This document shows, piece by piece, positions 15,202-50,612 of a stretch of DNA of 64,000 nt. Under the pieces are notes generated by a model, which saw nothing but the letters and a program-made list of their open reading frames with translations, did no database searches and had not been told where the DNA came from. Positions within the stretch are counted from its first letter, which is position 1. Each line of letters opens with the position of its first letter. The position numbers were made by a program, and so were the translations under genes. Where the stretch lies: the NCBI RefSeq assembly GCF_028369105.1, contig NZ_JAQNDO010000001.1:248001-312000 (forward strand), given 5' to 3'. Source of the stretch: Polyangium mundeleinium. Lineage in GTDB: Bacteria > Myxococcota_A > Polyangia > Polyangiales > Polyangiaceae.

Positions 15202-15220
15202 GATTCTCGGGAATCCGAGG

Positions 15221-15250: not shown

Positions 15251-15265
15251 CCGAAAATACCCGAG

Positions 15266-17833: not shown

Positions 17834-17858
17834 GTTCACCTGAAGGAGATCGGTGTTG

Positions 17859-20420: not shown

Positions 20421-20427
20421 AATGAAA

Positions 20428-20466
20428 AAGGGCCTCGCCCGGGCGAATCACCCGCGCGAGGCCCTT
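20428..20466. terminator. bidirectional intrinsic terminator
   Basis: A perfect 11-bp stem (AAGGGCCTCGC, 20428-20438, with GCGAGGCCCTT, 20456-20466) has a 17-base loop and an A tract on its left arm, which acts as a T tract for minus-strand transcripts. It separates the RCC1 gene from the convergent DUF1501 gene. Confidence 0.8.
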
Positions 20467-20482
20467 GTCCACCGTCAGGCCT

Positions 20483-21934: not shown

Positions 21935-21947
21935 GGCGTGTTCCTCC

Positions 21948-24319: not shown

Positions 24320-24411
24320 GGGGGGTACGGCTCGGGGTCTGAGGGGGGCACCGCGGGCGCAGCGGGCCAGACTCCAGTGGAACCGAGCCATAACGCTTCG
24401 TCAACCATCTC

Positions 24412-24440
24412 TTGGGAGTGGGGACGAAATTTGTTATCCT
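24412..24440 (+). promoter_or_regulatory. sigma-70-like promoter
   Basis: TTGGGA (24412-24417) and TATCCT (24435-24440) with a 17-base spacer lie 45 bases upstream of ATG 24485, in the divergent gap between the two heme-protein genes. Confidence 0.4.
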
Positions 24441-24484
24441 GCCAGGCCGTGCTCGACTCCCTCCATCTACAGTCCCATCGAAGA

Positions 24485-25777: not shown

Positions 25778-25823
25778 GGCGCCTCACGGGCGATGGGTCC
25801 CGCGGGCCCACGAGACGGAGTCG

Positions 25824-28118: not shown

Positions 28119-28219
28119 CACACCCGAAACGCCCTTTCGCCGCGCATGGTAACAGAGCCGCGGGGGCATGGGAGGCTCTTCCCTTGACGGCGCGCGACAA
28201 GGCTGGCCTCCTCCGGGAC

Positions 28220-29056
28220 ATGTCATCGCTCGAATCGTATTTCCCGACACTCGACACGGCGCGCGCGCGGCTGCCGCTGCCGGCGGGGGAGCCGGTCTCG
28301 GTGGAGCGGCTCGCGATGCTGGTCGTGCACGCGGCGTTGATCCGGCGCACGAGCTGGGCGGAGGACGTGGAGAGCGCGCCTGCGGGGCTCGAGAGCGGCG
28401 AACCCCCGCCGCCCGACGACCTGGAGGTCCACCACCACGTGCGCATCGACGCGAGCCTCGGGGGCGGCGAATGCACGGCGTGCACGGCGAACCCGGGACA
28501 GCGGCGCTGCCGCATCTGCGGCGGCGCGGGCACGCTCTTCAACGGCAAGACGCGCTGCTCGTGCGACGAGGGATTCATCCCGTGCCCGACGTGCGGCGGC
28601 ACGGCGGAGGCGAGCCGGGTCCGGCTCCGTTATTACACGGACACGCCGGCCTTCTTGAGCGAGGCCTACATGCCCACGCACATCACGGCGGTGCCGGCGC
28701 TCTTCGGGCTGGAGAGCCGCATGGAGCAGGACGTCCAGTTCCAGCAGGCGTTACCCGAAGAGCTGCGCTGCCACGACCTCACGGGCCGCGTCACCGGTTC
28801 GGCCTATCGCGGCGGCGAGAAAATCGTTCGGCCCGACTTCCACGGGCACGATTTCGGAGACGCGATCGACAAGGCGCTCGCGGGCCTCACGGCGATCGGC
28901 GCCGGCGCGAGCGTGGTGCGCCACGTGGTCCGGGCCTATGCGTGGCCGTTCTTGCGGCTCCAGTGGGGGACGGGGTTGGACGTGGCGATTTACGTGGACC
29001 GGATCGGGAGCCTCAAGGTGTTCGCGGGGGCCGGCGGCCTGCCGTCGCGCGATTGA
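28220..29056 (+). CDS. DnaJ-type zinc-finger domain protein without J domain
   Basis: A 278-residue cytoplasmic-looking protein. Residues about 80-135 contain a Cys cluster of the DnaJ central-domain type: CTACTANPGQRRCRICGGAG, TRCSCDEGF and CPTCGGT. The CxxCxGxG spacing in the middle pairs is intact, though the first pair lacks the glycines. A DnaJ J domain (HPD) is absent. The remainder is alpha/beta with DLTGRVTGSAYRGGEK and RHVVRAYAWPFLRLQWGTG. No other family is recognised. It is divergent from the VOC-TIG gene, about 100 bases apart. A zinc-binding protein, possibly a protein-interaction module, is as far as the sequence allows. Confidence 0.65.
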   Translation: MSSLESYFPTLDTARARLPLPAGEPVSVERLAMLVVHAALIRRTSWAEDVESAPAGLESGEPPPPDDLEVHHHVRIDASLGGGECTACTANPGQRRCRICGGAGTLFNGKTRCSCDEGFIPCPTCGGTAEASRVRLRYYTDTPAFLSEAYMPTHITAVPALFGLESRMEQDVQFQQALPEELRCHDLTGRVTGSAYRGGEKIVRPDFHGHDFGDAIDKALAGLTAIGAGASVVRHVVRAYAWPFLRLQWGTGLDVAIYVDRIGSLKVFAGAGGLPSRD

Positions 29057-29143
29057 CGGCTCCCGTTCCACCCTGGAAACCCCCCCAAACTTTTCCCGCT
29101 CCCTGGAGCCGCGCTCTCTTGCCGGCCGGGCTGGGCGTCCACT

Positions 29144-30025
29144 ATGACGCACGGCACCATGACCCGCGTGCTGACCGAGCTGATCGAGCTGCTCTCGCTG
29201 GAGAGGATCGAAACCAACCTGTTTCGGGGCCAGAGCCAGGACCTCGGCTGGGGCCAGGTCTTTGGCGGTCAGGTACTCGGCCAGGCGCTCTCGGCCGCCG
29301 CGCAGACCGTGCCCCCCGAGCGCCAGGTCCATTCGCTCCACGCGTACTTCCTCCGCCCCGGCGACGCGCGCAAGCCGATCGTCTACGACGTCGATCGCAT
29401 CCGCGACGGACAGAGCTTCACGACCCGCCGCGTGGTGGCCATCCAGAATGGCCAGCCCATCTTCAACATGTCCGCCTCTTTCCAGATCGAGGAGGAGGGA
29501 TTGGACCACGCGGACAGCATGGAGAACGTCCCCGGTCCGGACGGGCTTTCGAGCCAGCGCGAGATCTGGAGCCGCCTGGCGCACAAGATCCCCGAGCCTT
29601 TCCGTACCCGCGCCGTCGCCGAGCAGCCGATCGAGATTCGCCACGTGAGCCCGATCGATCCCTTTCATCCGGAGAAAAAAGAGGCCCACGAGGCCATCTG
29701 GATCCGCGCGGCCGGCGCCCTGCCCGACGATCCGGCGCTGCACCGGTACTTGCTCGCGTACGCGTCGGACCACGCCTTCGTCACGACGGCGCTACGCCCC
29801 CACGGCGTCACGTGGTTCGATTTCTCGATGCAGGTCGCCAGCATCGATCACGTGATGTGGTTCCACCGGCCTTTCCGGATGGATGACTGGCTCTTGCACG
29901 TGATCCACAGCCCGTCGGCGTCGGGGGCCCGTGGGCTCGTGCGGGGCAGCGTCTTTTCGCGAGATGGTCGGCTCGTCGCGTCCACCGCCCAGGAAGGGCT
30001 TTTGCGTCGGCGAACGCGGGGGTAG
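29144..30025 (+). CDS. tesB: acyl-CoA thioesterase II (TesB family)
   Basis: Hydrolyses acyl-CoA to free acid and CoA in the cytoplasm; TesB enzymes act on medium- to long-chain substrates. The 293-residue double-hotdog protein has the N-terminal DLGWGQVFGGQVLGQALSAA and HSLHAYFLRPGD, and in the C-terminal hotdog the catalytic set recognised for E. coli TesB: Asp in LLAYASDHAF, Ser/Thr in SIDHVMWFHRPF, and Gln in STAQEGLLRRR. An alternative start at ATG 29159 would remove five residues. It lies just before the remnant of cas6 and the CRISPR array, and is not obviously linked to them. Confidence 0.93.
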   Translation: MTHGTMTRVLTELIELLSLERIETNLFRGQSQDLGWGQVFGGQVLGQALSAAAQTVPPERQVHSLHAYFLRPGDARKPIVYDVDRIRDGQSFTTRRVVAIQNGQPIFNMSASFQIEEEGLDHADSMENVPGPDGLSSQREIWSRLAHKIPEPFRTRAVAEQPIEIRHVSPIDPFHPEKKEAHEAIWIRAAGALPDDPALHRYLLAYASDHAFVTTALRPHGVTWFDFSMQVASIDHVMWFHRPFRMDDWLLHVIHSPSASGARGLVRGSVFSRDGRLVASTAQEGLLRRRTRG

Positions 30026-30049
30026 GGGGCCCTTCTGCTCTCCGCGTTC

Positions 30050-30353
30050 TCTCCGGGGCCTGCGCTCACGCCTCCGCGTCTCTCCGACCGGCCCGAGCAC
30101 CCCGCAGCCCGTCCGTTGCCACCCGCCGATTCCGGCCCGTTGTACGGCGAGCGATCCATCCTCGGAGAGCCCTCGCAGCGTCGTCCTGAAGCCGACCACC
30201 TTGTTCCCGGCGATCGTCACGATTCTCCGCCGCCCACCTCGATCGACGCCGTCACGCCGAGCGCATCAAGCTGCCTTTTCACGGCCTCGGCGAACGGCTC
30301 CGGCTTCTGGAAGCCCTTGAACACTACCATTCTCGCCGTCAGCGCCTCGGTGG
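30050..30353 (-). pseudogene. truncated, frameshifted copy of the 3' end of cas6
   Basis: This stretch aligns with the last about 290 bases of the intact cas6 gene (39171-39460), same orientation, with about nine positions in ten identical by eye. The translated remnant preserves FKGFQKPEPFAEAVKRQLDA, then after a one-base deletion near 30230 a frame change, then TIAGNKVVGF, TTLRGLSEDGSLAVQRAGIG and QRTGCGVLGPVG, equivalent to the glycine-rich end of the intact protein. The 5' two-thirds of the gene is missing; similarity stops abruptly at about 30353, 23 bases before the first (degenerate) CRISPR repeat. The intact copy ends at the start of cas3, whereas this remnant ends next to tesB. It indicates an ancient duplication of part of the locus. 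No functional product is expected. Confidence 0.85.
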
Positions 30354-30375
30354 CATAACAAAACAACGAATAACC

Positions 30376-31224
30376 GCCCTCAACGCCTTATCGGCATCCC
30401 AGCAGAACTCGGCAAGACCCCGCAGCGAGCAATCGACCGGGCGCACACGTGCTCAACGCCTTATCGGCATCCCAGCAGAACTCGGTTCGCGTCGCCCATC
30501 GGAGTCTATGCCCTGGAAGGCACGTGCTCAACGCCTTATCGGCATCCCAGCAGAACTCGGCCACAGTTCGGCGGCTGGGCTCGTCGGCTCGGACGAGGCG
30601 TGCTCAACGCCTTATCGGCATCCCAGCAGAACTCGGCGTCCTGCTCGCCTACGACGAGCGGCTGCGCGGCAGGTGCTCAACGCCTTATCGGCATCCCAGC
30701 AGAACTCGGCGAGCACGCGCGAGCGCGTCGGCACCGAATTCGATCGGTGCTCAACGCCTTATCGGCATCCCAGCAGAACTCGGAACGGAATCAAGTCATC
30801 CAAGGCATCGTCGAGGTGTGCTCAACGCCTTATCGGCATCCCAGCAGAACTCGGAACGTGGGCCGTTGGCTTCAATCGCACACGCGAGGAGTGCTCAACG
30901 CCTTATCGGCATCCCAGCAGAACTCGGAGGTAGCGTTCCCGTCCACGACGCGCCCTCCAGTACTAGTGCTCAACGCCTTATCGGCATCCCAGCAGAACTC
31001 GGCCTACCGTGATGTCTGCCAGCGTGTTTTCGGCTCGGAAGTGCTCAACGCCTTATCGGCATCCCAGCAGAACTCGGATTGTGCCGCTGGCCGTGAACAA
31101 CAATGCGATGTTGTGCTCAACGCCTTATCGGCATCCCAGCAGAACTCGGTCCGTTACGGGCAAGCCGTTGCGTTCCAGTTGGTCGAGGTGCTCAACGCCT
31201 TATCGGCATCCCAGCAGAACTCGG
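30376..31224 (-). CRISPR. CRISPR array, 12 repeats of 37 bp and 11 spacers
   Basis: Twelve copies of a 37-bp repeat occur at starts 30376, 30449, 30524, 30600, 30673, 30747, 30818, 30891, 30966, 31041, 31113 and 31188. Eleven are identical by eye; the first (30376) differs at its second and third bases, the usual sign of the leader-distal end. The 11 spacers are 36, 38, 39, 36, 37, 34, 36, 38, 38, 35 and 38 bases and all differ. Read on the minus strand, the repeat starts CCGAGTTCTGCTGGG, contains the hairpin ATGCC/GGCGT around a GATAA loop, and ends TTGAGCAC, which would be an 8-base 5' handle after Cas6 cleavage. This orientation agrees with cas2 being upstream (31510-31803) and the leader at 31225-31509. 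Confidence 0.97.
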
Positions 31225-31509
31225 TCCCCACCCCCGTAGCCCTGGAAACTCCACGGGAATCTGGACCCCTTTGCAAGCACCTTCGCTCCTACCGGCTCCT
31301 CGCCCTCTCCACCGTGCTCCACCACCGCGCAACCCTCCGTCTTCACGCCTCTTCTCTCTGATCAAGCACCTCCGCGCCTCCATCTTGGTTGTCAAACACC
31401 AACGAGATCGGACACTTGACGCTCTGCATGGACCTTCCCGGGGGCCGGTTGGTACCCACCCCCGGAGATCCTTGATCCGCCCGATCCCTCCGTCCACGCT
31501 CCTCCCCTC
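31225..31509 (-). promoter_or_regulatory. probable CRISPR leader
   Basis: The 285 bases between cas2 and the repeat at 31188-31224 hold no credible gene and lie at the end where repeats are perfect, so they are the likely leader. A TTGACA hexamer on the minus strand (31395-31390) is present but no good -10 follows at 16-18 bases, so the promoter is not firmly placed. Confidence 0.5.
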
Positions 31510-31803
31510 CTACACGATCTTGGCCGGGGCGTCATCCACCACCCACACGTCCTTCCGGTTTCGCATCACCATCCTCGCCACGCATGCCGAGCACAGCGGC
31601 ACGAACAGAAGACTGTCCTCCGCGTCCAGCACCTTCTCCAGCTCCCACCGCAGCTCCTCCAGCCGCCGCACCGACAGCCAGCACCGGAACACCGAGTATT
31701 GAACCCGCGTCCCGTACCCCCGCAGCACCTTGTATCCCTTGCGCCATCGCTTCGGATCTCGGATGTCGTACGACACCAGATACCATGACTTCGCCTCGCT
31801 CAT
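31510..31803 (-). CDS. cas2: CRISPR-associated endoribonuclease Cas2
   Basis: A 97-residue adaptation protein. It has the Cas2 ferredoxin-like pattern: WYLVSYDIRDPKRWRKGYKV with the conserved first-strand Asp (VSYDIRDPKR), GYGTRVQYSVFRCWLS, a helix LEELRWELEKVL, and DSLLFVPLCSACV. It works as a dimer with Cas1 in spacer acquisition. The C-terminal residues (VWVVDDAPAKIV) match the tail of the myxobacterial group. It is the last gene of the cas operon, 24 bases after the cas4-cas1 gene, and adjoins the leader of the array. Confidence 0.96.
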   Translation of the reverse strand: MSEAKSWYLVSYDIRDPKRWRKGYKVLRGYGTRVQYSVFRCWLSVRRLEELRWELEKVLDAEDSLLFVPLCSACVARMVMRNRKDVWVVDDAPAKIV

Positions 31804-31827
31804 CGCGCCCTTCTTTCCCCCGCGGCC

Positions 31828-33480
31828 TCACCGCAGCCTGAATTTCGCGAACAACCCCGGCGCCCCGCACCACTCCTTCTCCAGGAGCCTCGCCTCCAGC
31901 TCGATCATTCGGCCGTACGACAGCGAATACCCCACCACCGAATGCTTCCACTCCTCCGCTCGTCGCCGCTCGTACACCTCCACGAGCTTCCGTTTCCCCG
32001 CCGCGCTCAGCCATATCCGCGGACCCGTCACTGAAAAATCTTCCTCCGGGTCCCATTGCCCCCGCCGGATCGACCCCAGCACCGCCATGTCCACCAGCGG
32101 CACCCGGAACAGCTCCATCAGGTCCAGCGAGAGCGGCGGCGCCGAGCTTCTCGGCCGATGATAAAACCCGAACGCCGGCTCCAGCCCCACGCTCGTCAGC
32201 GCCGTCGTCACGTCCGAAAGTAGAAGCGCATAACCGAACCCGAGCAGCGCGCTCACCCGGTCTCGCGGTGGCCTCCGCGTCCGCCCCGCGTACCGCAGCC
32301 GCTCATCCACCTCCCCGAGCAGCACGTTCCACGTCGAGAAATACGCCGCGGCCCCGGCGCCCTCGTTTCCGAGCAGCTCCTCCACCGTCCCTGCGGCGTG
32401 CGCTCCTCGAACCGCCCGCCGCATCCCGTCGAGCATTTCCTCCACCGCGGCCGGCCTCGCCCTCTCTCCTCGCGTCGACCGCAGCACGAACCGGAGCTGA
32501 CCTTCGAGCTTCGCGCCCACCAGCCGCCGCGCCAGATCCAGCGCGAAGCCCTCTTTTCCGAGGGCCTCGTATTGACGGATGCGCCGCTGCACCGACCCCG
32601 CCCCGGCGGAGAGCGAACCGATGAACCGCCCCCCTGTCGTCACCCATGACACCCCCACCTCCCGCTCCGCGCAGAGGTGCAGCGCTTGCGTCGAGATCTG
32701 CGCGCCGCCGTGCAGCACCACGTGCCTCGTCGACCTCGACGGCACGCGCGTCTCCTCGCCCTCGCGTGGCGTCACCACGAGCTCGTCACCACTTCGGCCC
32801 ACGCGCGCGCCGTGCGTCGTCACGTGCAGCGCTTGCCGGTCATCGTCCTTGGGTGTGAGACGCGGAGGCTCGCGCGCCTCGTCTTTTGCCAGCCGCTCCT
32901 CCTCTGGCAGGCATACCGGCGCGAGCGAGCAATGCGTGCAGAGCCGCTCGTTTGGCGTCACCGGCGGCCGCTCCACCGTCCCGCGCAGCGCCCTTCCTCG
33001 CTGGATCGCCGCGCGCACCTCCGCCCGGAGCGCCTCGTCCACCGCGACGCGCACGGTCACGTTGTCCGCGTGGTATCGCAGCCGCCCCTCGGGGACGACC
33101 TCGCCGGTCGCCTCCTCCACGAGCATTGCGTAGGCCCCGACCTGCAATCGATCCGAGGGCCACGCTTCTGGCGCCTCCTTGCCCTCGCCCCGCTTGCAGC
33201 GCCCTCGTTTGTGCTCGTAGGGGATCCACCGCCCGTCGCGCCGCCGCAGCGCGTCCACCTCCCCGCGCAACCCGAGCGCTTCGCTCTCCAGCACGAACCT
33301 CTCCGAGGGCCCGTCCCCCTCCTCCCGCGCGAGCTCCGCGTGCAGCGTCCGCCCGGCATACACGCGCGCGTCCGCGACGCGGATCTCCTCCACCTCTTCC
33401 AGAAAAAACAATCGCTCACAATACGCGAGCGCGTGCAGCGCCATCACGCGCAGCGGCGCGCCGTCCCCCGAACCATCCAT
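31828..33480 (-). CDS. cas1: Cas4-Cas1 fusion protein
   Basis: A 550-residue adaptation protein joining a Cas4 exonuclease to the Cas1 integrase. Cas4 (about 1-200): Cys21 in AYCERLFFLEEV, active-site Asp in GEVDALRR, Glu and Lys in PYEHKRG, and the C-terminal iron-sulfur Cys triplet CTHCSLAPVC (181, 184, 190). Cas1 (about 215-550): Glu373 in GNEGAGAAAYF, His441 in GFYHRPRSSAPPLSLDL and Asp in SLDLMELFR, the metal-binding set for spacer integration. Cas4 trims pre-spacers and helps select the PAM in related systems. Cas4-Cas1 fusions are known in the GSU0054 (I-U/I-G) and Myxococcus-type systems. Start is ATG 33480; the gap to cas5 is 81 bases. Confidence 0.96.
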   Translation of the reverse strand: MDGSGDGAPLRVMALHALAYCERLFFLEEVEEIRVADARVYAGRTLHAELAREEGDGPSERFVLESEALGLRGEVDALRRRDGRWIPYEHKRGRCKRGEGKEAPEAWPSDRLQVGAYAMLVEEATGEVVPEGRLRYHADNVTVRVAVDEALRAEVRAAIQRGRALRGTVERPPVTPNERLCTHCSLAPVCLPEEERLAKDEAREPPRLTPKDDDRQALHVTTHGARVGRSGDELVVTPREGEETRVPSRSTRHVVLHGGAQISTQALHLCAEREVGVSWVTTGGRFIGSLSAGAGSVQRRIRQYEALGKEGFALDLARRLVGAKLEGQLRFVLRSTRGERARPAAVEEMLDGMRRAVRGAHAAGTVEELLGNEGAGAAAYFSTWNVLLGEVDERLRYAGRTRRPPRDRVSALLGFGYALLLSDVTTALTSVGLEPAFGFYHRPRSSAPPLSLDLMELFRVPLVDMAVLGSIRRGQWDPEEDFSVTGPRIWLSAAGKRKLVEVYERRRAEEWKHSVVGYSLSYGRMIELEARLLEKEWCGAPGLFAKFRLR

Positions 33481-33561
33481 GTGGAACCTCCCCGTGAGGA
33501 ATAGGTTTTACTGGAGGGTACGGGCGCTTGCGGCGGAGGCCAAGTTTGTCGGCGGGGTTTG

Positions 33562-34251
33562 TCAGGGAGCCCAGGGCGTCCACGTCCACGCCTCGTCGGG
33601 CGGGAACGCACACGCCTCCTCGATCGGCGCGAAGAGCTGCGACGTCGTCCTGCTGCTGTCCTCGCGGTCGATCCCGATCGTCAACCGGCACGAACCTCGG
33701 CGCGGCCGGTCTCCCGGCGCGAGGGGCGTGTACCAGCGCGCCACGACGGGCGTATCCAGCGCCTCGATCCGATCGAAGAGCAAGTTGTTATCGCCCGCGA
33801 AGGGCAGGCCGTACCGTGCGTCCGCCAGCTCTCCCCGCAGACCTCGCCGCACCCGCTCGCAGAGCGCCGCCTCCGCCTCGACCCCGATCATTACGTCGAG
33901 GTCCACGACGAGCTCCCGCCGCGCCGGCGCGATCCAGTATTTCGCCCCGTGCGTCCGCGCCTTGTGCTCCTGCCCCGACGCCCCCACGGGATACGAGTGG
34001 AGCTGCTGATACAAAGTCGCCGTCTCCGTCGGCGAGACAGCCCCGATTGCGATACGCAATCGCGGCACGTCCCTCCGGATGCGCGTCGTCGGCGTGGGCT
34101 CCGGGTCGCGCATCTCGATCCCCGCGCAGTTCAGCACGAGCCCGAATGCGGCCGACGGCGGCATCGTCGGCGCGCTCGGCCGGTACACGCCTGCCTGCAT
34201 CGCCCGGTACGCCGCGAAGGGCGCGCGTGCACGCAGCCAGAGCCGCTCCAT
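33562..34251 (-). CDS. cas5: Cas5 (DevS-like)
   Basis: A 229-residue Cascade subunit that caps the crRNA 5' handle. The N-terminus (RLWLRARAPFAAYR, then QAGVYRPSAPTMPPSAAFGL, LVLNCAGIEMRD) is the Cas5 RAMP ferredoxin fold with the conserved Pro-Ser-Ala-Ala-Phe-Gly, and the later TATLYQQLHSYPVG, KYWIAPARRELVVD and GLPFAGDNNLLFDRIE segments match DevS of Myxococcus. Known: in M. xanthus devS is part of the developmental dev operon. The start ATG overlaps the last base of the cas7 stop (TGATG), indicating coupling. Confidence 0.92.
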   Translation of the reverse strand: MERLWLRARAPFAAYRAMQAGVYRPSAPTMPPSAAFGLVLNCAGIEMRDPEPTPTTRIRRDVPRLRIAIGAVSPTETATLYQQLHSYPVGASGQEHKARTHGAKYWIAPARRELVVDLDVMIGVEAEAALCERVRRGLRGELADARYGLPFAGDNNLLFDRIEALDTPVVARWYTPLAPGDRPRRGSCRLTIGIDREDSSRTTSQLFAPIEEACAFPPDEAWTWTPWAP

Positions 34252-35147
34252 CACGCCTCCCCGAAGGCCGCCGCGCCGATCTTTTCGAGCAGCACCTGCG
34301 GGTTCTCGAAGAGCCGCGCGCCCTCTTTCTTCAGCCGCTCCTTCTCCTCCGCCTTCATGCCCCGCACGATCTCCCCGCCGATCCACATCTCCCGACCCGG
34401 CAGATCGTCCGCGTGGATACGCGCGAGCTCCGCGAACTTCCCCTCCGCGTCGAAGCCGTACGTATCGAACCCGGCGACGAGCCTCGGCGACAGCCGCGCC
34501 ACGATGCTCCGCGGCGCCATCTCGAAGTACGCGCGCGCGTGTCCACCCGCCACGTTCGACAGCTCCCCGATCGCCCGCAGCAGAGCCTTCGTCCATGCCT
34601 TGCCCTCCTTGGCCTTCAGGCAATCCTCGATCGAGAGCGCGAACGGATACTGGTAGGCGGTGTGATTCACCTCCCGGTGCAGCAGCGCGGACGTCGTCGC
34701 ATTCTTCCAGGGGCTCGCTCCGGCGTTCAGGGGCGATTGATGAAACGTCGCGTCGAAACGATACGGCGACGTCGCCACGGCGAGATTCATCCGCAGCACG
34801 CTGTCGCGCTTCGCCGGGCGCTTCTCCTTTTTCATCGTCGCGCCGTCGGCGACCATGTAACCGAACAGGAAATCGTCCGCGTACGCCTCCGCGTTCGGGA
34901 AACTCTTGAACTCCACCGCGAGCTGATCCTCGTCGTGCAGCCTTCGCCGGTTCATCGGCAGCTCGTATCCTGCGAGGATCTCCCGCAGCGCGTTGCGCAT
35001 CGACTCCGGGCTGATGACCGTGTACTCCTCGTTCTTGCGCGTAATCTTCTGGAGGACCGTTCGGTTCTCCTCGCTCTCGCCCCTGTAATTCGAGCTCGGC
35101 GCGGCGTAGGTGAGGACGGTGGCGAACAGATTCAATCGCTGGGACAT
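34251..35147 (-). CDS. cas7: Cas7 (DevR-like)
   Basis: A 298-residue Cascade backbone protein that coats the crRNA. It has the DevR/Cas7 signature: RLNLFATVLTYAAPSSNYRG, NRTVLQKITRKNEEYTVISP, SMRNALREIL, then NHTAYQYPFALSIED and a Gly-rich loop in the C-terminal RAMP region (LSNVAGGHARAYFEMAP). Several copies are expected per complex. DevR is a known regulator of fruiting in M. xanthus, where the system was first identified genetically. The start at ATG 35147 is two bases after the cas8 stop. Followed by cas5 with a one-base overlap. Confidence 0.95.
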   Translation of the reverse strand: MSQRLNLFATVLTYAAPSSNYRGESEENRTVLQKITRKNEEYTVISPESMRNALREILAGYELPMNRRRLHDEDQLAVEFKSFPNAEAYADDFLFGYMVADGATMKKEKRPAKRDSVLRMNLAVATSPYRFDATFHQSPLNAGASPWKNATTSALLHREVNHTAYQYPFALSIEDCLKAKEGKAWTKALLRAIGELSNVAGGHARAYFEMAPRSIVARLSPRLVAGFDTYGFDAEGKFAELARIHADDLPGREMWIGGEIVRGMKAEEKERLKKEGARLFENPQVLLEKIGAAAFGEA

Positions 35148-35149
35148 GA

Positions 35150-36835
35150 TCAGGACTCCTTCGCGGGGATGGACCAGGCGTTCGCGGAGAGGGCGAGCAA
35201 CGTCAGCGTGCGGACTTTGCCTGTGTCGCCTTGCAGGGCGTGCGTGAGCCGGCTGTATCGCTTCGTATCCAGGAATTGAGGCACCGAGCAGAGCGTGCCG
35301 GCGAAGTACGAGACGAAGTCCTGCTCGGGCCTCGCCCGTACCGCGAGGAACGCCTCTTTCGCGACCTTCTCCTTCTTCTCCTCGTAGTCTTTCTTGGATT
35401 TCTTGCCGGCCTTCACATCCTCCCAGGCGAGGTTGTATTTGGCCTTCAGCTTCCCGCGCACGTAGCCGCTGACCACCGCGTACACGATGGCCTCGATGCT
35501 GTCGTCTCGCGTGTTCTCCGGTGTCTCGTTCTCTTCTTGCATCTCTGCTGCCTCGTTCGACGTGATCTCGAAATACTTGCGCGCGTCGTGGCGGAATGCG
35601 TTTGAGCCGAATGTCATCGTGGAGAGCGGGCTCGTCGCGATGAGACGATCGAAAGCGACATGGCGCGGACGGCCGTGGATCAGGTTCGAGAGCCAGACCT
35701 GGCGGAAGGGCGGATGCCTGAACGCCTTGCGGTTCCGCGCGTAGTGGTCGACCGTGTCCGCGTCCGGCTCGACCCGCGACGACGAGAGCACACGCACGTT
35801 GTTGCCCTCCTTCGTCACGTGATGGACCTCGTAGCCGAGCACGAGATCCGCCGTGTCTTTCCTCCCTTCCCGTGCGGCAATTCGCTCCCGGAGACGCCTC
35901 GCCGTGTCGAGCGCCCCCTCGATCGCCAGATCCAGCACGGCCGCCTCCGGCAACGATTTTCCGATGGCCCGCGTCTCGCGAGCTTTCAGCACGTACGGTA
36001 GCTCCTCGCAGAACGACGCGAGCGCGGCCACGTCGGGCACCACGATCGCGTACGGCACGTATTCGCGTTTCCCGTCCTGTGGTTTCACGTGCGCAGGGAC
36101 GTAGATCGACGCGACGAAGGGCCAGAAATGCAGGAGGAATTGATACCGCGCTCGATCGAAGAACGGCACCCCGTCCGCCGAATTCGCCTGCGCGCCCAGG
36201 TAATACGTGCTCGGCAGCCGCACCGCGTGCTCCGGCGGACGGCACAGGTCCTTCCACGTATCCTCGGCGAGCCCGCACGCCCTCTTCGCCGCGCGCTCCT
36301 CGAATGGCGCGCGCGTCGCCGGCACGCCGCGGAATGTCTCCCACAACATGCGCCGGAACAGCGCCGTCCACTCCCCGCCTTTCGAGCCGTTCCCCGAGGG
36401 GTCATACGAGACGAGCCACGCGCCGCTCGGCACGATCCTCGGGTACACGTAATACGTCTTCGTCTTGACCTTCCCCTTCTTGTCGACCTCCTCCTTTTGC
36501 ACCTCGCGGATCGGCGCTTTGTTTTTCCACGGGCTCGGGTACTCCTCCTCCTCGCTCGCCGCCTCGTATGTCGCGTCGAGCAGGCTCCCGAGCCCCGCGA
36601 GATCGATCAAAAGCGAAAGGCCCGCCTCGTCGATACGCGTGATCCGACACGTCCCCGCGAAGCCTCCCGGCTGCCCTTCGAGCCAGCGCACCATGAGCAC
36701 GAGCCCGGCGAGCCCCGCCCGGTGTTGCGCCGAGGGCAGCTCCGCGAGCGACCATTCCAGCGCAAGCACCGAAGGCGCTTCGTCCTTCTTCGCCGCCTTG
36801 CCCCGCGACGCTTTGGCGTTCGTCGTCTCCGTCAT
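35150..36835 (-). CDS. cas8: Cas8-type large subunit (Cmx8-like)
   Basis: A 561-residue Cascade large subunit for PAM recognition and Cas3 recruitment. The N-terminal segment (SVLALEWSLAELPSAQHRAG, LAGLVLMVRWLEGQPGGF) and middle (PYAIVVPDVAALASFCEELP, FRHPPFRQVWLSNLIHGRPR) match Cmx8 proteins of the I-MYXAN subtype, as recalled, not searched. No nuclease motif is visible. Lys/Glu-rich stretches (PIREVQKEEVDKKGKVKTK and a C-terminal KSKKDYEEKKEKV) suggest nucleic acid contact. Its ATG overlaps the stop of cas3 as ATGA at 36832-36835, so translation is coupled. The corresponding dev gene in M. xanthus is devT or its neighbour; which one is not resolved here. Confidence 0.85.
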   Translation of the reverse strand: MTETTNAKASRGKAAKKDEAPSVLALEWSLAELPSAQHRAGLAGLVLMVRWLEGQPGGFAGTCRITRIDEAGLSLLIDLAGLGSLLDATYEAASEEEEYPSPWKNKAPIREVQKEEVDKKGKVKTKTYYVYPRIVPSGAWLVSYDPSGNGSKGGEWTALFRRMLWETFRGVPATRAPFEERAAKRACGLAEDTWKDLCRPPEHAVRLPSTYYLGAQANSADGVPFFDRARYQFLLHFWPFVASIYVPAHVKPQDGKREYVPYAIVVPDVAALASFCEELPYVLKARETRAIGKSLPEAAVLDLAIEGALDTARRLRERIAAREGRKDTADLVLGYEVHHVTKEGNNVRVLSSSRVEPDADTVDHYARNRKAFRHPPFRQVWLSNLIHGRPRHVAFDRLIATSPLSTMTFGSNAFRHDARKYFEITSNEAAEMQEENETPENTRDDSIEAIVYAVVSGYVRGKLKAKYNLAWEDVKAGKKSKKDYEEKKEKVAKEAFLAVRARPEQDFVSYFAGTLCSVPQFLDTKRYSRLTHALQGDTGKVRTLTLLALSANAWSIPAKES

Positions 36836-39174
36836 GCCTTCCCCTTCGCCGCTTCGGCCAGAAAGCCAATCCGCTCGTCGTACGCCGCGCCGTCCGCGAC
36901 GCCGTAATACCCGGGCAACCACGAGGGCCGACCCTCGCTCGGGAGCACCGACGTGAAGGGCACGGGCACCACGAGCCCATCGAGCGGCTCCCTCGCGCGG
37001 TAGAGCGCTCGCGCCTCCTCCAGATCCCCGTCCAGGATGCAGGGCCGCGAGCGCTCCTCGATGTCGCGGAAGGTCCCCGGCGTCGCGTAGTACCCCTCGT
37101 GAAGGAACCGCGCCCAGGCGTCGGGCATCCGCTCCGCGTTCGCGTGGATCTCGAACAGCCCCGCGAGCAAGCGCTGGCTCGTGTCGCCCGACCCGATCGC
37201 GTCGAGGAAACGCTTCGTTGCGTCGAGCTCCGACGCATCGTACGGAAGCGTGTTTTCGGGCGGCACGACGATCACACGCGCGCGGAACGCCTCGCCTCGC
37301 GCGAGCTTCCGGTTGGCTCGCCCGAACCGCTGCACGAGCGCCGGGATCGGCGCGAGCTCCGTGATCAGGAGGTCCGCGTCGAGGTCGAGGCTCATCTCGC
37401 AGACCTGCGTCGTCACGGCGAGCGCCGCCTGGCTCTCCTGCTGGAACGCCTCCACCGTCGCTGTGTGGACCGCTTGCCGATCGCGGAGCTTGAAGCGGCT
37501 GTGATAACAGAGCGGCGCCGCGCCGAGCGCCGCTTCGAGCTGGCGCGTGAGCACTTGCGCGCGCCGCACCTGGTTGACGACGCAGAGCACGCGTCGACCT
37601 TCGCGGAACGCGTTCGCCGCGATCTCCACGCAGGCGCTCGTGTTCGCCGCCTGCTCGATCCGGTAGCGCGGATGCCCCTCGGCCCGCTCCAGATCCTCGA
37701 GCTCGGCGCGGTGCTCCTCGCGCGGGTACGTCACGAGCCCTCGCGCTTCGAGCGCCCTCCGCCGCGCGGGCGGCAGCGTCGCCGTCATGCAGAGGACGGG
37801 CACGTCGAAGTGATCGAGCAGCGCCAGCAGGGCCTCGAACATGCGCGGATCGAAGCTGTGCACCTCGTCGATGATCACGGCCGCGTCGGCGAGCACGGGC
37901 ACGAGGCACAGGCTCCTGTACGCGTGCTCCAGGAAGCCGAGGAATTGATCGACCGTCGCGCTGAAGTACGTGCGCGACCAGAGCCCAAGCGCGAACAGCC
38001 GCTCGTCCGCTTCGTTCAGGTGGTGCCGCGTGGCCTTGTCGTGATCGGCGGGGTTGTCCCGCATCGCCTCGATCTCGTAGCGGCTCGACGCGTGCACGAG
38101 CGCGCCCTCTCCTTCCGGCGCCGCGCCCACGTAGTCGCGGAAGCCTTCGGTCGCGGTGCCGCGCGTCGGGTAGAGGAAAACGACCCGCCCGATGGGCCGC
38201 GTGCGTGCTTGCGCCTCGGCCCACTTCCACGCGGCGAGCGTCTTGCCCGCGCCGCACGCCGCGCGAAGGAGCGCGCGCGGGCCGAGCTCCGCGGCGGCTT
38301 CCTGAAAGCGATGCGGTTTGTAGGGCTGCCGCTTCTCGATCTCCTGGATGCGCGGCGCGATCACCGCGGCGTGGATCTCCTCCGGCGTGAGCGCCGGGCG
38401 CCGCGCGACCTCGTCGATCCATGCCTCGAAAGACAGCCCTTCCCGCACGACGGCCGAGGCCACCGCGTCCGCCGCGATCAAGCCGGCCTTCGTCGCGAGC
38501 AGGAGCGCGCGCCGCGCGCGGGACGCCTCGTCTTGTGCGCGCAGCGCCCTCTGGAGCGCCTTCGCGGCGTCCCTTCCGCGCTTCAGCGCCTCCCCAAAGG
38601 GTGGCGCATGGCTCCATCGTCGAGCGGGCAACTCCGGCGCATCGTCGAGCGAAAGCAGCTCGCGGACGCGCGAAAGGATCGCGCGGACCTCCGCGTGCTG
38701 GAGGTAAAGCGCGACGCTCTTCTTGCCGTCTTGCGGCTCGCACCAACGGTGGTCCCCGTCCTGACCCGCCTTCACGTGATGCGAGAGCACGGCGGCCGTG
38801 ACCACGTCGTGATCGAGCGCGGCGTTTTTTGCGAGCCACGCCTTCACCTCGGGCAGGTGCAACACGAGCGCGGAGAGGTGCTCGTGCCGCACCGTCTGCG
38901 GCTCCGTGCGTGTGCGCGTGACGGCCGCGAGGAAATCCTCGTTGGCCTTGCCCAGGTCGTGAAAGAGCGCGGCGACGCGCAGGTGCAGGAGGAAACGCGG
39001 GCGCGCCTCCTCGGCGATCCGAAAGAACCGACAGAACGACGTCCCCCAGCGACTCTCGGGCCCGAAGAGGCGCGCGGCGGCGCGCTCGGTGTCGTTCGCG
39101 TGCGCCTCCAGCGTGACCGGATCACGCCCGCTGCGAATGCTCTTGGCGAGGAGCCTGTCCGGGCTCCCGCTCAC
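36832..39174 (-). CDS. cas3: HD-Cas3 nuclease-helicase
   Basis: A 780-residue interference enzyme that unwinds and degrades target DNA recruited by Cascade. The N-terminal HD nuclease is recognised by His72-Asp73 in ALFHDLGKANED, His97-Glu-His99 in VRHEHLSAL and LSHHV (about 131). The helicase has Walker A CGAGKT (about 308-313), DEVH (436-439), TAT (464-466) and motif VI QRFGRANR (615-622). DEVH replaces the more usual DEAH. The GTG at 39174 overlaps the TGA of cas6 (GTGA), which fixes the start; the upstream in-frame sequence is shadow. The 3' end overlaps cas8. Confidence 0.96.
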   Translation of the reverse strand: MSGSPDRLLAKSIRSGRDPVTLEAHANDTERAAARLFGPESRWGTSFCRFFRIAEEARPRFLLHLRVAALFHDLGKANEDFLAAVTRTRTEPQTVRHEHLSALVLHLPEVKAWLAKNAALDHDVVTAAVLSHHVKAGQDGDHRWCEPQDGKKSVALYLQHAEVRAILSRVRELLSLDDAPELPARRWSHAPPFGEALKRGRDAAKALQRALRAQDEASRARRALLLATKAGLIAADAVASAVVREGLSFEAWIDEVARRPALTPEEIHAAVIAPRIQEIEKRQPYKPHRFQEAAAELGPRALLRAACGAGKTLAAWKWAEAQARTRPIGRVVFLYPTRGTATEGFRDYVGAAPEGEGALVHASSRYEIEAMRDNPADHDKATRHHLNEADERLFALGLWSRTYFSATVDQFLGFLEHAYRSLCLVPVLADAAVIIDEVHSFDPRMFEALLALLDHFDVPVLCMTATLPPARRRALEARGLVTYPREEHRAELEDLERAEGHPRYRIEQAANTSACVEIAANAFREGRRVLCVVNQVRRAQVLTRQLEAALGAAPLCYHSRFKLRDRQAVHTATVEAFQQESQAALAVTTQVCEMSLDLDADLLITELAPIPALVQRFGRANRKLARGEAFRARVIVVPPENTLPYDASELDATKRFLDAIGSGDTSQRLLAGLFEIHANAERMPDAWARFLHEGYYATPGTFRDIEERSRPCILDGDLEEARALYRAREPLDGLVVPVPFTSVLPSEGRPSWLPGYYGVADGAAYDERIGFLAEAAKGKA

Positions 39175-39854
39175 GCCCTCGCCTCCCTCCCGACCGGCCC
39201 GAACACCCCGCAGCCCATCCGTTGCCGCCCACCGATCCCCGCCCTTTGCACGACGAGCGATCCTTCCTCGGAGAGCCCTCGCAGCGTCGTCCCGAAGCCG
39301 ACCACCTTGTCCCCGGCGATCGTCACGATCCTCCGCCGCCCCACCTCGATCGACGCCATCACGCCGAGCGCATCGAGCTGCCTTTTCACGGCCTCTGCGA
39401 ACGGCTCCGGCTCCTGGAAACCCTTGATCACCACCATTCTTGCCGTCAGCGCTTCGGCGGGCCGGAGCGGATACACGCGGGACACGCCGACGTGCACGCG
39501 ATATCCATCGACATCGAGCGCCTTCCCCGCGAGCGCGAGCACGCGCGGGATCTCGGCGGGCACCACGCGCAATTGCAGCGAGCCGCGCCGTGGATGCAAC
39601 GCGAGCAATCCATCCGGCCGCGGGATCCCCCCGAGCGGGTGCACCGCGAGCCACGATGCGCCGTGCAGATCCCCGAGCACCCGCGCGAGGGCGCCGAAGA
39701 GCGCGTACCCGTGATCGCGTGGCACGAGCGTGCCTGCGAGCGGGAAGACGATGTCGACACGGTCGGGCGGCGAGGACGGCGCGGACAGAGTCACGTGCAG
39801 GCTCCGTGGGCTGGAAGGGTACGCGTGCAACCCTATCGGAAGCCTGCCGCTCAT
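39171..39854 (-). CDS. cas6: Cas6 (Cmx6-like) crRNA endoribonuclease
   Basis: A 227-residue RAMP nuclease that cuts the pre-crRNA in the repeat. The sequence DIVFPLAGTLVPRDHGYALF, GDLHGASWLAVHPLGGIPRP, DGYRVHVGVSRVYPL and IKGFQEPEPFAEAVKRQLDA runs into the glycine-rich loop and end GIGGRQRMGCGVFGPVG, matching the Myxococcus Cmx6 group. The candidate active-site His is in RDHGY. The start at ATG 39854 (SGRLPIG) lacks a clear ribosome binding site; an open frame continues upstream through the 43-bp repeats, so the true start is uncertain by 10-20 residues. First gene of the cas operon; cas3 overlaps its stop. Confidence 0.9.
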   Translation of the reverse strand: MSGRLPIGLHAYPSSPRSLHVTLSAPSSPPDRVDIVFPLAGTLVPRDHGYALFGALARVLGDLHGASWLAVHPLGGIPRPDGLLALHPRRGSLQLRVVPAEIPRVLALAGKALDVDGYRVHVGVSRVYPLRPAEALTARMVVIKGFQEPEPFAEAVKRQLDALGVMASIEVGRRRIVTIAGDKVVGFGTTLRGLSEEGSLVVQRAGIGGRQRMGCGVFGPVGREARA

Positions 39855-39930
39855 GGATACAGCAACTTTGCGCTCCCCTTGTCGCCCTTCACGGCCGCGG
39901 CGCGTCCCCCCGTTTCCCCGCCTCCTTCCC
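39855..39930. other. upstream region of cas6
   Basis: Seventy-six bases between the cas6 start and the 43-bp repeats. No convincing minus-strand promoter is visible; a weak GCGACA / TGTATC pair is present. Transcription could start here or beyond the repeats (40230-40356). Confidence 0.3.
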
Positions 39931-40229
39931 CCTCGCCACGCGGCGACCCCCTCGCGCAAGGTCCACGCGCGTCCCTCGCCCCGTGGCGACCCCCTCATGC
40001 AACGCTGACCCGTCCCCCTCGCCACGCGGCGACCCCCTCCTGCAACGCTGCCCCGTCCCCCTCGCCACGCGGCGACCCCCTCCTGCAACGCTGACCCGTC
40101 CCCCTCGCCGCGCGGCGACCCCCTCGCGTCACGTTCTCCACGACCCCTCGCCATGCGGCGACCCCCTCGCGCCACGACGACGCGTCCCCATTGCCACGCG
40201 GCGACCCCCGCGCGCGCCTCCGGCGTCGA
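39931..40229. repeat. seven 43-bp tandem repeats with a dyad, upstream of the cas operon
   Basis: Seven units with a 23-base core (CCTCGCCACGCGGCGACCCC plus CTC) start at 39931, 39974, 40017, 40060, 40103, 40144 and 40187; six spacings are 43, 43, 43, 43, 41 and 43 bases. The core is strongly kept, while the other 20 bases drift from unit to unit. Each core contains the inverted repeat TCGCC/GGCGA about a 4-base loop. Unlike a CRISPR array, the intervals between cores also resemble each other (ATGCAACGCTGACCCGTCCC in units 2-4). The seventh unit is decayed. The position between the first cas gene and the divergent gene at 40357 suggests a regulatory role, but nothing in the sequence proves it. 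Confidence 0.9.
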
Positions 40230-40356
40230 ACTCCTGCTTTCTTTTTTGCCCCAATGAAAACGCCCCATCTCCGTTCAACGTGCACCCGCCGGCGCGACGC
40301 GCTCGGCTGGGTTGTCGGAACCAACCAGACCGGGCCATGGGCCCAGGGAAGAGACC

Positions 40357-41061
40357 ATGCGCAGTTATCGCAGCAATGCCGCGTCGGACGTCCGTATCGA
40401 GTATGGCATCGAGCTTGGCGAGGGCCTCGCGTTGTTCCCCGAGCTGACCTCGGCGGCCTCGGATATCAGCACGATCAATGGCGCGCTCGCGGCCCGGTAC
40501 GAGAGCCGCCGCGCCCTCCGCATTCCGGTCCTCCGGACCCGCGCCGCGCTTCGCTTCGCCGAATACAGCGTCGAGCGCGTCGTTCGCTCCGCGCTCCGCG
40601 CCGCCGAGATCGAGGATGGCGGCAGGCGCGCGCGCATCTGCGCGAGCGTCTTTCCGAAAGGATCCAACCCGATCCTCAAGCCCGTCGGAAAGCGCCAGGT
40701 CAAGCCACTGAAGGACCTCGTCGAGCGGCTGGCGAAATCGCAGGTCGCCGGCATCGACGCGTATCGCGCCGTGTGGCTCCCGAAGCTCCAGGACGCGCTC
40801 GCGAGCTTCGAGGTGGCGGTCGCCACGCACCTCGCCGCCCTCGCGGCGTATGACGACGTATTCAAGGCCGAGCTCGCGCTCCGCGACGCGCACCATGACG
40901 CCGTCGACCGGATCATGGGCCAGGTCCGCGCGGCATTCCCGCGCGACCGCGCCCTGCAGGACGTCCTCTTCCCGCCCGTCGACGAGGCCGACGCCACCAC
41001 CAGCGAGGACGGCGCGGAAGAACCGCTCCCCTCGCATCCGCTCCCGCCCACCGACGCCTGA
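40357..41061 (+). CDS. hypothetical helical protein
   Basis: A 234-residue soluble protein of unknown family. It starts at ATG 40357 after GGGAAGAGACC. The N-terminal 40 residues (IEYGIELGEGLALFPELT) are followed by long helices (residues about 55-85 and 110-205) rich in Ala, Arg, Glu and Leu, with VAGIDAYRAVWLPKLQDA and FEVAVATHLAALAAYDDV. The C-terminus is acidic and Pro/Glu-rich. No signal peptide or membrane helix. It is divergent from the cas operon, with the 43-bp repeats in the shared intergenic space, and ends in a strong terminator. Function unknown; no CRISPR-linked family was recognised. Confidence 0.65.
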   Translation: MRSYRSNAASDVRIEYGIELGEGLALFPELTSAASDISTINGALAARYESRRALRIPVLRTRAALRFAEYSVERVVRSALRAAEIEDGGRRARICASVFPKGSNPILKPVGKRQVKPLKDLVERLAKSQVAGIDAYRAVWLPKLQDALASFEVAVATHLAALAAYDDVFKAELALRDAHHDAVDRIMGQVRAAFPRDRALQDVLFPPVDEADATTSEDGAEEPLPSHPLPPTDA

Positions 41062-41069
41062 CCTCGACC

Positions 41070-41104
41070 GGCGCGGGCTCGCTCCGCTCGGTCGAGCCCG
41101 CGCC
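41070..41104 (+). terminator. hairpin terminator
   Basis: A perfect 12-bp stem (GGCGCGGGCTCG, 41070-41081, with CGAGCCCGCGCC, 41093-41104) with an 11-base loop is followed by a pyrimidine-rich run, immediately after the stop at 41061. Confidence 0.75.
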
Positions 41105-41175
41105 TCCTCCTCTCTCTTCCCCGCCGCTTCCCCCTCGCCTCGACATACCCGACCGTCTTCGGTAAGATCTCGCTC

Positions 41176-41802
41176 ATGAGCTTCGTCGCTCACGACGCCG
41201 ACCGCGCGTCCCCTCGGCGCATGACGCTCGAGGAGTGGGCCGCGCTGCCCGAGGACGAGCCGGGGGAGCTCGTCGACGGCGAGCTCGTCGAGGAAGAGAT
41301 GGCCGGGTACGTCCACGAGGTCGTCGTCATTTGGCTCGCGCACCTGCTTCGATCCTGGGCGATCGCGCATGGAGCGCGGGTGGCCGGGTCCGCGGGGAAG
41401 TTTGCCGTGTCGGCCACACGGGGGCGCATGCCGGACCTCACGGTGTACCTCGCCGGATCACGCCGCCCGCCCGCGGAAGGACCGATCCGCGTGCCCCCGA
41501 GCATCGCCGTCGAGGTCGTCTCGGCGACCCCCCGGGATGCCCGGCGCGACCGCGTGGAGAAATTGAAGGAGTACGCTGCGTTCGGCGTGAAATGGTACTG
41601 GATCGTCGATCCTGCGCTTCAATCGTTCGAGATCCTCGAGCTCGGACCGGAGAGCGAATACATCCACAAGGTCACGTCGACCGACGGGCGGATTGAATCG
41701 GTTCCGGGATGCGCCGGGCTCCTGATCGATATCGATGCCCTGTGGGCGGAGGTCGCCGAGGTGCGGGCCGAGGGCGAGGGCGAGGCGCCGGAGAAAACCT
41801 GA
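41176..41802 (+). CDS. Uma2-family (DUF820) endonuclease-like protein
   Basis: A 208-residue protein with the Uma2/DUF820 pattern: the MTLEEWAALPEDEPGELVDG start with a conserved Glu-Leu-Val-Asp-Gly, a middle RMPDLTVYL with the Pro-Asp-(L/V) motif, PPSIAVEVVSATPRDARRDRVEKLKEYAAFGVKWYWIVDP with the PD-(D/E)XK-type Glu...Lys pair (Val-Glu-Val-Val-Ser; Glu-Lys-Leu-Lys). Family members are restriction-fold nucleases of poorly known purpose, common in large bacterial genomes. The preceding gene does not share a transcript (terminator between). Confidence 0.85.
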   Translation: MSFVAHDADRASPRRMTLEEWAALPEDEPGELVDGELVEEEMAGYVHEVVVIWLAHLLRSWAIAHGARVAGSAGKFAVSATRGRMPDLTVYLAGSRRPPAEGPIRVPPSIAVEVVSATPRDARRDRVEKLKEYAAFGVKWYWIVDPALQSFEILELGPESEYIHKVTSTDGRIESVPGCAGLLIDIDALWAEVAEVRAEGEGEAPEKT

Positions 41803-44802: not shown

Positions 44803-44927
44803 GGGACCTTCGTGGTTCCCGGCCGTTTCGAGCGCAAGCGCGGCGATCTCCTCACGTCGCCCGTCAGTGCACGAGGCTCACCCACGTCCCGTTGCGCGAG
44901 GTGTCCGGAGCCGATCCGATCCGTTCC

Positions 44928-44957
44928 TGGACATTTTCCGAGCTTCGATCGTACGAT
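44928..44957 (+). promoter_or_regulatory. possible sigma-70-like promoter
   Basis: TGGACA (44928-44933) and TACGAT (44952-44957), 18 bases apart, lie 57 bases upstream of the barrel-protein start at 45015. The -35 has one mismatch to TTGACA. Confidence 0.35.
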
Positions 44958-45014
44958 GCCTGAAGACCGCTTCCGAGCGCCCACGTACACGCCGCCAGGA
45001 GAAATGGCCACGCC

Positions 45015-46637: not shown

Positions 46638-46657
46638 CCGGAGGCCTCGCGACGCCC

Positions 46658-47065: not shown

Positions 47066-47069
47066 TGGC

Positions 47070-50572: not shown

Positions 50573-50612
50573 CCTTTACCTCGGCCCCCGCGAGCCGCTA
50601 CCCTCGGCCGCG

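What the first reader, a model, noticed from the sequence alone, without database searches (positions are those of the whole stretch)
30050..39460. CRISPR-Cas locus bounded by direct copies of cas6, one truncated
The 3' end of cas6 (39171-39460) recurs as a frameshifted remnant at 30050-30353, on the same strand and next to the leader-distal end of the array. The two stretches are about 300 bases, roughly nine in ten identical by eye, and the 9.1 kb between them holds cas3 to the array. This is the geometry left by tandem duplication of the whole locus followed by loss of one copy. It also means homologous recombination between the two copies could excise the module or rebuild a chimeric cas6. 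The remnant lies where a second locus would begin.
Basis: seen in the sequence. Interest (0 to 1): 0.75.

Follow-up and report, generated by a model that had tools for sequence, protein, structure and literature searches.

The report
Cas6 scar beside a swapped CRISPR locus
A broken piece of the CRISPR gene cas6 lies at the far end of a bacterial CRISPR-Cas locus, and a sister species carries a different set of target-cutting genes between the same neighbouring genes, so the piece may be a scar of how such gene sets are rebuilt in place.

Summary
Window 30063-30353 is a 5'-truncated, twice-frameshifted copy of the 3' end of cas6 (39168-39460), same strand: 264/293 identical, E 6e-112. These are the only two places found in the 13.25 Mb genome. 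The locus is a complete single-copy type I-MYXAN (Cmx8/Cas8b) system with a 12-repeat array.

"Tandem duplication, then loss" is possible but unproven. The remnant differs from cas6 about as much as the host's cas6 differs from that of Polyangium fumosum, and its changes look roughly neutral.

Its Cas6, Cas4-Cas1 and Cas2 are 94-97% identical and its repeat is the same, but cas3-cas8-cas7-cas5 is a far diverged Cas8a1-type module. The difference begins about 10 bases past the cas6 stop. P. fumosum lacks the 3' remnant but has its own stray 5' cas6 piece and relics of another array. Three other species of the genus have an empty site.

Best reading: scar of a two-locus stage recombining at cas6, a known exchange anchor. 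A lone inserted fragment is a serious rival.

The parts
30063..30353 (-). cas6 remnant: 3' part of cas6 including the stop, 5'-truncated, two one-base deletions
   Evidence: blastn 264/293 to 39168-39460; codon positions and gaps; only two places in the genome
30376..31224 (-). CRISPR array, 12 repeats of 37 nt, 11 spacers, leader on the right; terminal repeat (30376-30412) degenerate
31225..31509 (-). leader region between cas2 and the array
   Evidence: by position only; the 250 bases from 31251 are 84% like P. fumosum
31510..31803 (-). cas2
   Evidence: Pfam PF09827
31828..33480 (-). cas4-cas1 fusion, MYXAN type
   Evidence: Pfam, TIGR03983
33562..34254 (-). cas5 (Cmx5/DevS)
34251..35147 (-). 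cas7 (DevR family)
   Evidence: TIGR02585 above cut-off; Pfam DevR below cut-off
35150..36835 (-). cas8, Cmx8/Cas8b type
   Evidence: Cas8b_N/C, TIGR04413 E 3.8e-163
36832..39174 (-). cas3, GTG start overlapping the cas6 stop
39171..39854 (-). intact cas6 (Cmx6); 39168-39460 is the stretch shared with the remnant
   Evidence: PF09559 E 2.4e-56, TIGR02807
33571..39160 (-). interference module with no nucleotide match in P. fumosum at the same site (exchanged block)
   Evidence: blastn and identity profile; protein identities
29144..30025 (+). acyl-CoA thioesterase II gene, left border of the insertion site
   Evidence: Pfam; found in 5 of 6 genus genomes
39927..40215 (.). 43-bp tandem repeats at the right border; the empty site of G004 also has 43-bp units
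40357..41061 (+). right border gene, no Pfam match

Best explanation
The remnant is the scar of a stage at which two MYXAN loci lay in tandem at this site. The likeliest course: a second MYXAN locus (from a relative or from the cell's own lineage) joined the resident one by recombination at cas6, giving cas6-locus-array-cas6-locus-array. The copy next to the thioesterase was then deleted except for the 3' end of its cas6. Such two-locus stages are one way in which the interference genes (cas3-cas8-cas7-cas5) could be exchanged while cas6, cas4-cas1, cas2 and the repeat stay. Shown: the remnant, the different interference modules of two sister species at one site, the borders of that difference at cas6 and cas4-cas1, and recurrence of such swaps on trees. 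Inferred: the tandem stage, its origin by recombination at cas6, and its link to the swap. Today the remnant is most likely inert; it is also a weak homology arm.
For: Same strand, 3' half, and a position exactly where a downstream locus would begin. P. fumosum holds at the same site a MYXAN locus with Cas6 97%, Cas4-Cas1 94% and Cas2 97% identical and the same repeat, but Cas3 33%, Cas7 30%, Cas5 21% and no blastp match for Cas8. That difference starts within about 10 bases of the cas6 stop, the same gene end at which the remnant's similarity stops. Among 18 MYXAN loci the two module types form one split on the cas7 tree but need at least 6 changes on the cas4-cas1 tree (AU p 2e-5) and 7 on the cas6 tree (p 1.6e-31), so exchange between cas6 and cas4-cas1 is frequent. 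The literature names cas6 and cas1/2/4 as attractor genes of in situ module exchange (PMC6452270, passages). Degenerate repeats of a different MYXAN array lie at the same site in P. fumosum. Remnant-only changes fall at codon positions 8/3/9, unlike 0/1/5 and 3/0/7 in the two working genes, which suggests that the copies were nearly alike when the remnant died.
Against: No other gene piece of a second locus was found beside the remnant. P. fumosum lacks the remnant, although the remnant is about as old as the split of the two cas6 genes. P. fumosum shows that a short internal cas6 piece can land near the locus among non-CRISPR genes. No genome with both module types was found: 6 and 4 of 183, no overlap. 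The remnant's place among the cas6 sequences is unresolved (bootstrap 61 with P. fumosum on all sites, 60 on positions 1+2, 25 with the window gene on position 3). The codon-position contrast is modest (Fisher p 0.096; P of 9 or fewer third-position changes of 20 at the working-gene rate 12/17 is 0.015). In M. xanthus, repair after CRISPR self-targeting was reported as end joining, not homology-directed (PMC11237760, abstract).
Confidence: 0.42

Rival explanations
1. Lone ectopic fragment: a ~290-base piece of cas6 was copied by break repair (end joining with filler DNA or template switching) into the gap between array and thioesterase gene; no second locus ever existed.
For: P. fumosum carries a 141-base internal cas6 piece, 98.6% identical to its own cas6, 9.1 kb from the gene amid non-CRISPR DNA, so such copies do arise at this locus. 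Microhomology end joining after CRISPR self-targeting is reported for Myxococcus xanthus (PMC11237760, abstract and passages). Both ends of the remnant are abrupt and nothing else of a second locus was found.
Against: Orientation and place are those a downstream locus would give, and the 3' end coincides with the end of cas6, where the interference modules of the two species also part.
Confidence: 0.3
2. Plain tandem duplication of this same locus followed by deletion of the downstream copy, unrelated to any module exchange.
For: Geometry; nearly neutral change of the remnant since the copies parted.
Against: Similarity stops at the cas6 stop: the 38 bases after it match neither this locus's cas3 start (shuffle p 0.49) nor that of P. 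fumosum (p 0.94). It leaves the sister species' different module to a separate event.
Confidence: 0.18
3. Differential loss: the common ancestor carried two tandem MYXAN loci with different interference modules; this species kept the Cmx8 locus and a cas6 3' relic of the other, P. fumosum kept the Cas8a1 locus and a cas6 5' relic of the first.
For: Explains the different modules and stray cas6 pieces on opposite flanks; the best tree on all sites joins remnant and P. fumosum cas6, bootstrap only 61.
Against: P. fumosum's 5' piece is 98.6% like its own cas6 and about 90% like this one, the reverse of the prediction unless gene conversion intervened. Cas6 and the cas4 half look orthologous between the species (third-position difference 0.12 and 0.11; 5 of 6 flanking genes 0.08-0.18, the 40357 gene 0.28).
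Confidence: 0.1

Closest known systems
Type I-MYXAN (MxI-B) CRISPR-Cas of myxobacteria
   Same: Gene order cas6-cas3-cas8-cas7-cas5-cas4/cas1-cas2-array; NCBIfam MYXAN models hit Cas6, Cas8, Cas5 and Cas1 above cut-off; both Cas8a1 and Cas8b3 signatures are described for the subtype (PMC11237760, passages).
   Different: A cas6 remnant at the array end, seen in this locus only (1 of 6 loci whose array end is visible).
In situ exchange of CRISPR effector modules at attractor genes (cas6, cas1, cas2, cas4)
   Same: cas6, adaptation genes and array kept, interference genes different between close relatives at one site (PMC6452270, passages). PMC12669027 (passages) counts such swaps by near-identical Cas1 with differing effectors.
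   Different: Here a possible physical by-product, a partial second cas6, lies at the locus; the passages I read do not mention such a scar.
Single-crossover (Campbell-type) merodiploids
   Same: Direct partial copies of one gene flanking a module (recalled knowledge).
   Different: No backbone or second module was found; the event is inferred.

Membership tests
Type I-MYXAN CRISPR-Cas | Cas6 of the Cmx6 family | tested here: met
   TIGR02807 183.8 bits, cut-off 98.85
Type I-MYXAN CRISPR-Cas | MYXAN Cas8 (Cmx8 or Cas8a1/Cmx1) | tested here: met
   TIGR04413 544 bits, cut-off 150
Type I-MYXAN CRISPR-Cas | Cas4-Cas1 fusion of MYXAN type, cas2, array | tested here: met
   TIGR03983 497 bits, cut-off 358; cas2; 12 repeats
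Type I-MYXAN CRISPR-Cas | Active interference | not testable with these tools
   needs a plasmid-interference assay
In situ interference-module exchange | Same genomic site in close relatives | tested here: met
   window and P. fumosum loci both lie between the thioesterase and the 40357 gene
In situ interference-module exchange | cas6, adaptation genes and repeat conserved while cas3-cas8-cas7-cas5 differ | tested here: met
   Cas6/Cas4-Cas1/Cas2 97/94/97%; Cas3/Cas8/Cas7/Cas5 33%/no match/30%/21%; profile
In situ interference-module exchange | Direction and donor of the exchange known | tested here: inconclusive
   nearest modules of either type in the loci compared are 47-73% identical proteins from other genera; ancestral state unresolved
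Tandem duplication of a CRISPR-Cas locus | Direct partial copies flanking the unit | tested here: met
Tandem duplication of a CRISPR-Cas locus | More than one gene of the second copy detectable | tested here: not met
   only the cas6 3' end; the bases after it match no cas3 start
Tandem duplication of a CRISPR-Cas locus | Intact two-locus state in a relative | tested here: not met
   in 183 order genomes and 377 phylum genomes (overlapping sets) one genome, G065, has two full-length cas6, on different contigs; contig ends limit this

The most novel reading that the evidence does not exclude
The remnant is a physical footprint of interference-module exchange: MYXAN loci are rebuilt through two-locus intermediates that recombine at cas6, so partial cas6 copies at locus edges mark sites where a CRISPR system has changed its cutting machinery while keeping its spacer-acquisition genes, repeat and repeat processing.
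Probability: 0.25. Interest if true: 0.6.

Novelty: new member of a known kind. Interest (0 to 1): 0.42.

Why it matters
Exchange of CRISPR interference modules is well documented from trees, but its molecular steps are seldom visible. A sister pair about 95% identical in long flanking blocks, with an empty site in other species of the genus, different modules between conserved borders, and stray cas6 pieces on the locus edges, offers a concrete place to ask how the exchange happens and whether a two-locus intermediate is needed. If the remnant is only a lone fragment, the sister-species swap remains a clean example of a known process.

Tried and rejected
Dispersed repeat or chance similarity: rejected (two places in the genome; E 6e-112).

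Second intact locus or cas6 in the genome: none found.

Remnant dated by tree: unresolved. Star-like branching; third-position differences 14/97, 12/98, 16/97.

Similarity of the bases after the remnant's stop to either cas3 start: none above shuffles.

Shared spacers with P. fumosum (11 against 50): none; best w7/f42, 14 of 15 bases. Spacers aimed at either locus, arrays masked: only matches of 13-18 bases. One search had dropped the rows of P. fumosum spacers against their own locus; one search mends that. One search also gave 16-20 base matches of spacers to other loci, not pursued.

L020 (partial cas6 at a contig end) was left out. The array end with at least 500 bases beyond it is visible in 6 loci (window, P. 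fumosum, G036, G202, L018, G221), so absence elsewhere is mostly untested.

Mobile carriers: no cas6 match in 50,697 phage records and no close relative in the viral contigs; Cas7 relatives on 8 of 72,556 plasmid records, all of them cyanobacterial by genus name.

Codon positions of the cas1 half of cas4-cas1 were counted in a shifted frame; the 93/347 printed as position 2 is position 3.

Two patterns used to confirm the P. fumosum relic repeats were taken from that very sequence, so their zero chance expectation is circular. The independent evidence is the G036 repeat as blastn query (E 2.4e-4) and its core with one mismatch there against 6-7 in the window outside the array and in G001, G002, G004, G005.

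Full report
Observation. Window 30063-30353 aligns with 39168-39460 on the same strand, 264 of 293 positions identical with two one-base gaps (E 6e-112). The right-hand stretch is the 3' end of cas6 (39171-39854, - strand; PF09559 E 2.4e-56; TIGR02807). The left-hand stretch is a remnant: it lacks about 131 of 227 codons and has two one-base deletions opposite 39342 and 39191. Its similarity ends three bases beyond the cas6 stop. It lies 22 bases from the degenerate terminal repeat of the array and 37 bases from the stop of a thioesterase gene. A whole-genome search with 30020-30378 gives these two places only.

The locus. Between them lie cas3, cas8, cas7, cas5, a cas4-cas1 fusion, cas2 and an array of 12 repeats and 11 spacers. 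NCBIfam calls Cas6, Cas8 (Cmx8), Cas5 and Cas1 type I-MYXAN, each above its cut-off. The genome (13.25 Mb, 2 contigs) has one intact cas6 and one array of this repeat.

Sister genomes. Long flanking blocks are 94.7% (14516-30027) and 95.1% (44887-54874) identical between these two; near the locus 13 of 16 windows of 250 bases on the left and 10 of 14 on the right reach 92%, but 40001-41250 on the right border only 63-81%. G004, G005 and G002 have the thioesterase gene and the 40357 gene about 470-480 bases apart and no cas6 match, which is the empty site; G004 has the same 43-base type of tandem repeat there. Similarity of the window's thioesterase flank runs to 30027, 30029 and 30040 in G005, G004 and G002, so the insertion begins between there and 30063. 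G001 has the 40357 gene but no match to the thioesterase at the limit used.

The sister locus differs inside. P. fumosum has the same gene order at the same site. Cas6 is 97% identical, Cas4-Cas1 94% and Cas2 97%, and the array has the same 37-base repeat (51 repeats). Its Cas3, Cas7 and Cas5 are only 33, 30 and 21% identical, and Cas8 gives no blastp match; its Cas8 is of the Cas8a1/Csx13 family (TIGR03485). Nucleotide similarity stops at 39161, about 10 bases past the cas6 stop, and resumes at 33570, at the end of cas5. So a whole four-gene interference module differs between borders at cas6 and cas4-cas1. The cas1 half of the fusion is 87% identical, cas4 95%, cas2 94% and cas6 94%.

Recurrence. 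I labelled 18 MYXAN loci by the module whose proteins matched better (11 Cmx8-like, 7 Cas8a1-like). On the cas7 tree the labels form one split. On the cas4-cas1 tree they need 6 changes (at least 5 forced by well-supported branches; shuffled labels average 5.8), and on the cas6 tree 7 (at least 3 forced; AU p 2e-5 and 1.6e-31 against one clade; quick trees). One cas4-cas1 row (G041) is only 24% filled. Module type is thus uncoupled from the cas6 and adaptation genes. In 183 genomes of the order, 6 match Cmx8 and 4 Cas8a1, none both. [quoted passage not shown]

Age of the remnant. Over the shared 293 bases, third-position differences are 14/97 (window cas6 against remnant), 12/98 (window against P. 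fumosum) and 16/97 (remnant against P. fumosum). Changes private to one sequence fall at codon positions 0/1/5 (window), 3/0/7 (P. fumosum) and 8/3/9 (remnant), with one site differing in all three. The remnant's changes look neutral (9 or more third-position changes of 20 at rate 1/3: P 0.19; 9 or fewer at the working-gene rate 12/17: P 0.015; Fisher test against the two genes p 0.096). The remnant is therefore about as old as the split of the two species, not recent, and decayed for most of that time; this is an estimate from 20 changes. Trees do not place it (bootstrap 61 with P. fumosum on all sites, 60 on positions 1+2, 25 with the window gene on position 3).

P. fumosum has its own oddities. 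It lacks the 3' remnant: its array ends 72 bases from the thioesterase stop in sequence that matches neither the window nor, by eye, the empty sites. On the opposite flank, between the 43-base repeats and cas6, lies an insertion of about 9.8 kb. It holds a 141-base internal piece of cas6 that is 98.6% identical to its own cas6, two degenerate MYXAN-type repeats about 69 bases apart and inverted to the live array, closest to the G036 repeat, an RHS/AHH reading frame, and an Imm11-type gene in a stretch that is present twice. So this site has held another array, and cas6 pieces have been copied here more than once.

Reading. Two-locus scar with recombination at cas6 (0.42), lone ectopic fragment (0.30), plain duplication and loss (0.18), differential loss (0.10). 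The first has the geometry, the shared breakpoint at the end of cas6 and the evident exchange at this site in its favour. Against it: no second gene of another locus was found, P. fumosum shows that cas6 pieces can be copied into non-CRISPR DNA, and a reported repair route after self-targeting in M. xanthus is end joining rather than homologous repair (PMC11237760, abstract).

Context counts. A second cas6 piece was found in 2 of 27 entries (25 distinct loci), window and P. fumosum. The array end with at least 500 bases beyond it is visible in 6 of these; a cas6 piece lies there in 1, the window. cas6 of this family occurs in 15 of 183 genomes of the order and in 10 of 377 sampled from the phylum.

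Novelty. The system is MYXAN and the exchange is a known kind. My searches for a prior report of such a cas6 scar, of Polyangium CRISPR loci or of tandem cas duplications (one search listed 15 of 29 papers) showed no paper whose title or abstract start describes it. I read passages of four papers (PMC6452270, PMC11237760, PMC12669027, PMC3150331), not whole texts, and subscription papers are mostly not held.

Noticed in passing
L011 180-9964 (G003:C123 about 334232-344016), P. fumosum: About 9.8 kb inserted just upstream of cas6, with an RHS/FG-GAP/AHH polymorphic-toxin-like reading frame, an Imm11-type gene in a stretch present twice (L011 1565-2706 and 2740-3881, 90.6% identical) and a stray cas6 piece; not present at this place in the window genome.
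   Followed up: partly
G003:C123 334285-334305 and 334348-334371 (L021 16286-16306 and 16349-16372): Two degenerate MYXAN-type CRISPR repeats, starts about 69 bases apart, inverted to the live array and nearest the G036 repeat: relic of another array at the same site.
   Followed up: yes
window 40357-41058: Right border gene without Pfam match; 70% identical to P. fumosum but 83% to G004, unlike its neighbours, with 2 further matches in the genome.
   Followed up: no
window 31828-32867: The cas1 half of cas4-cas1 differs more from P. fumosum (87%) than cas4, cas2 or cas6: possible mosaic.
   Followed up: partly
L018 and L019; L012 and L045: Two further pairs of loci that are sisters by cas6 and cas4-cas1 but carry different interference module types.
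   Followed up: partly
L045/L064 (G036): MYXAN locus flanked by arrays on both sides, 51 and at least 63 repeat matches, with slightly different repeats.
   Followed up: no
L049, L051, L054, L055, L056, L058: MYXAN-family cas6 without recognisable MYXAN interference genes in the DNA fetched; what they serve was not examined.
   Followed up: no
window 5749-6123 and about 15500-20500: Local repeats seen in the window self-comparison, not examined.
   Followed up: no
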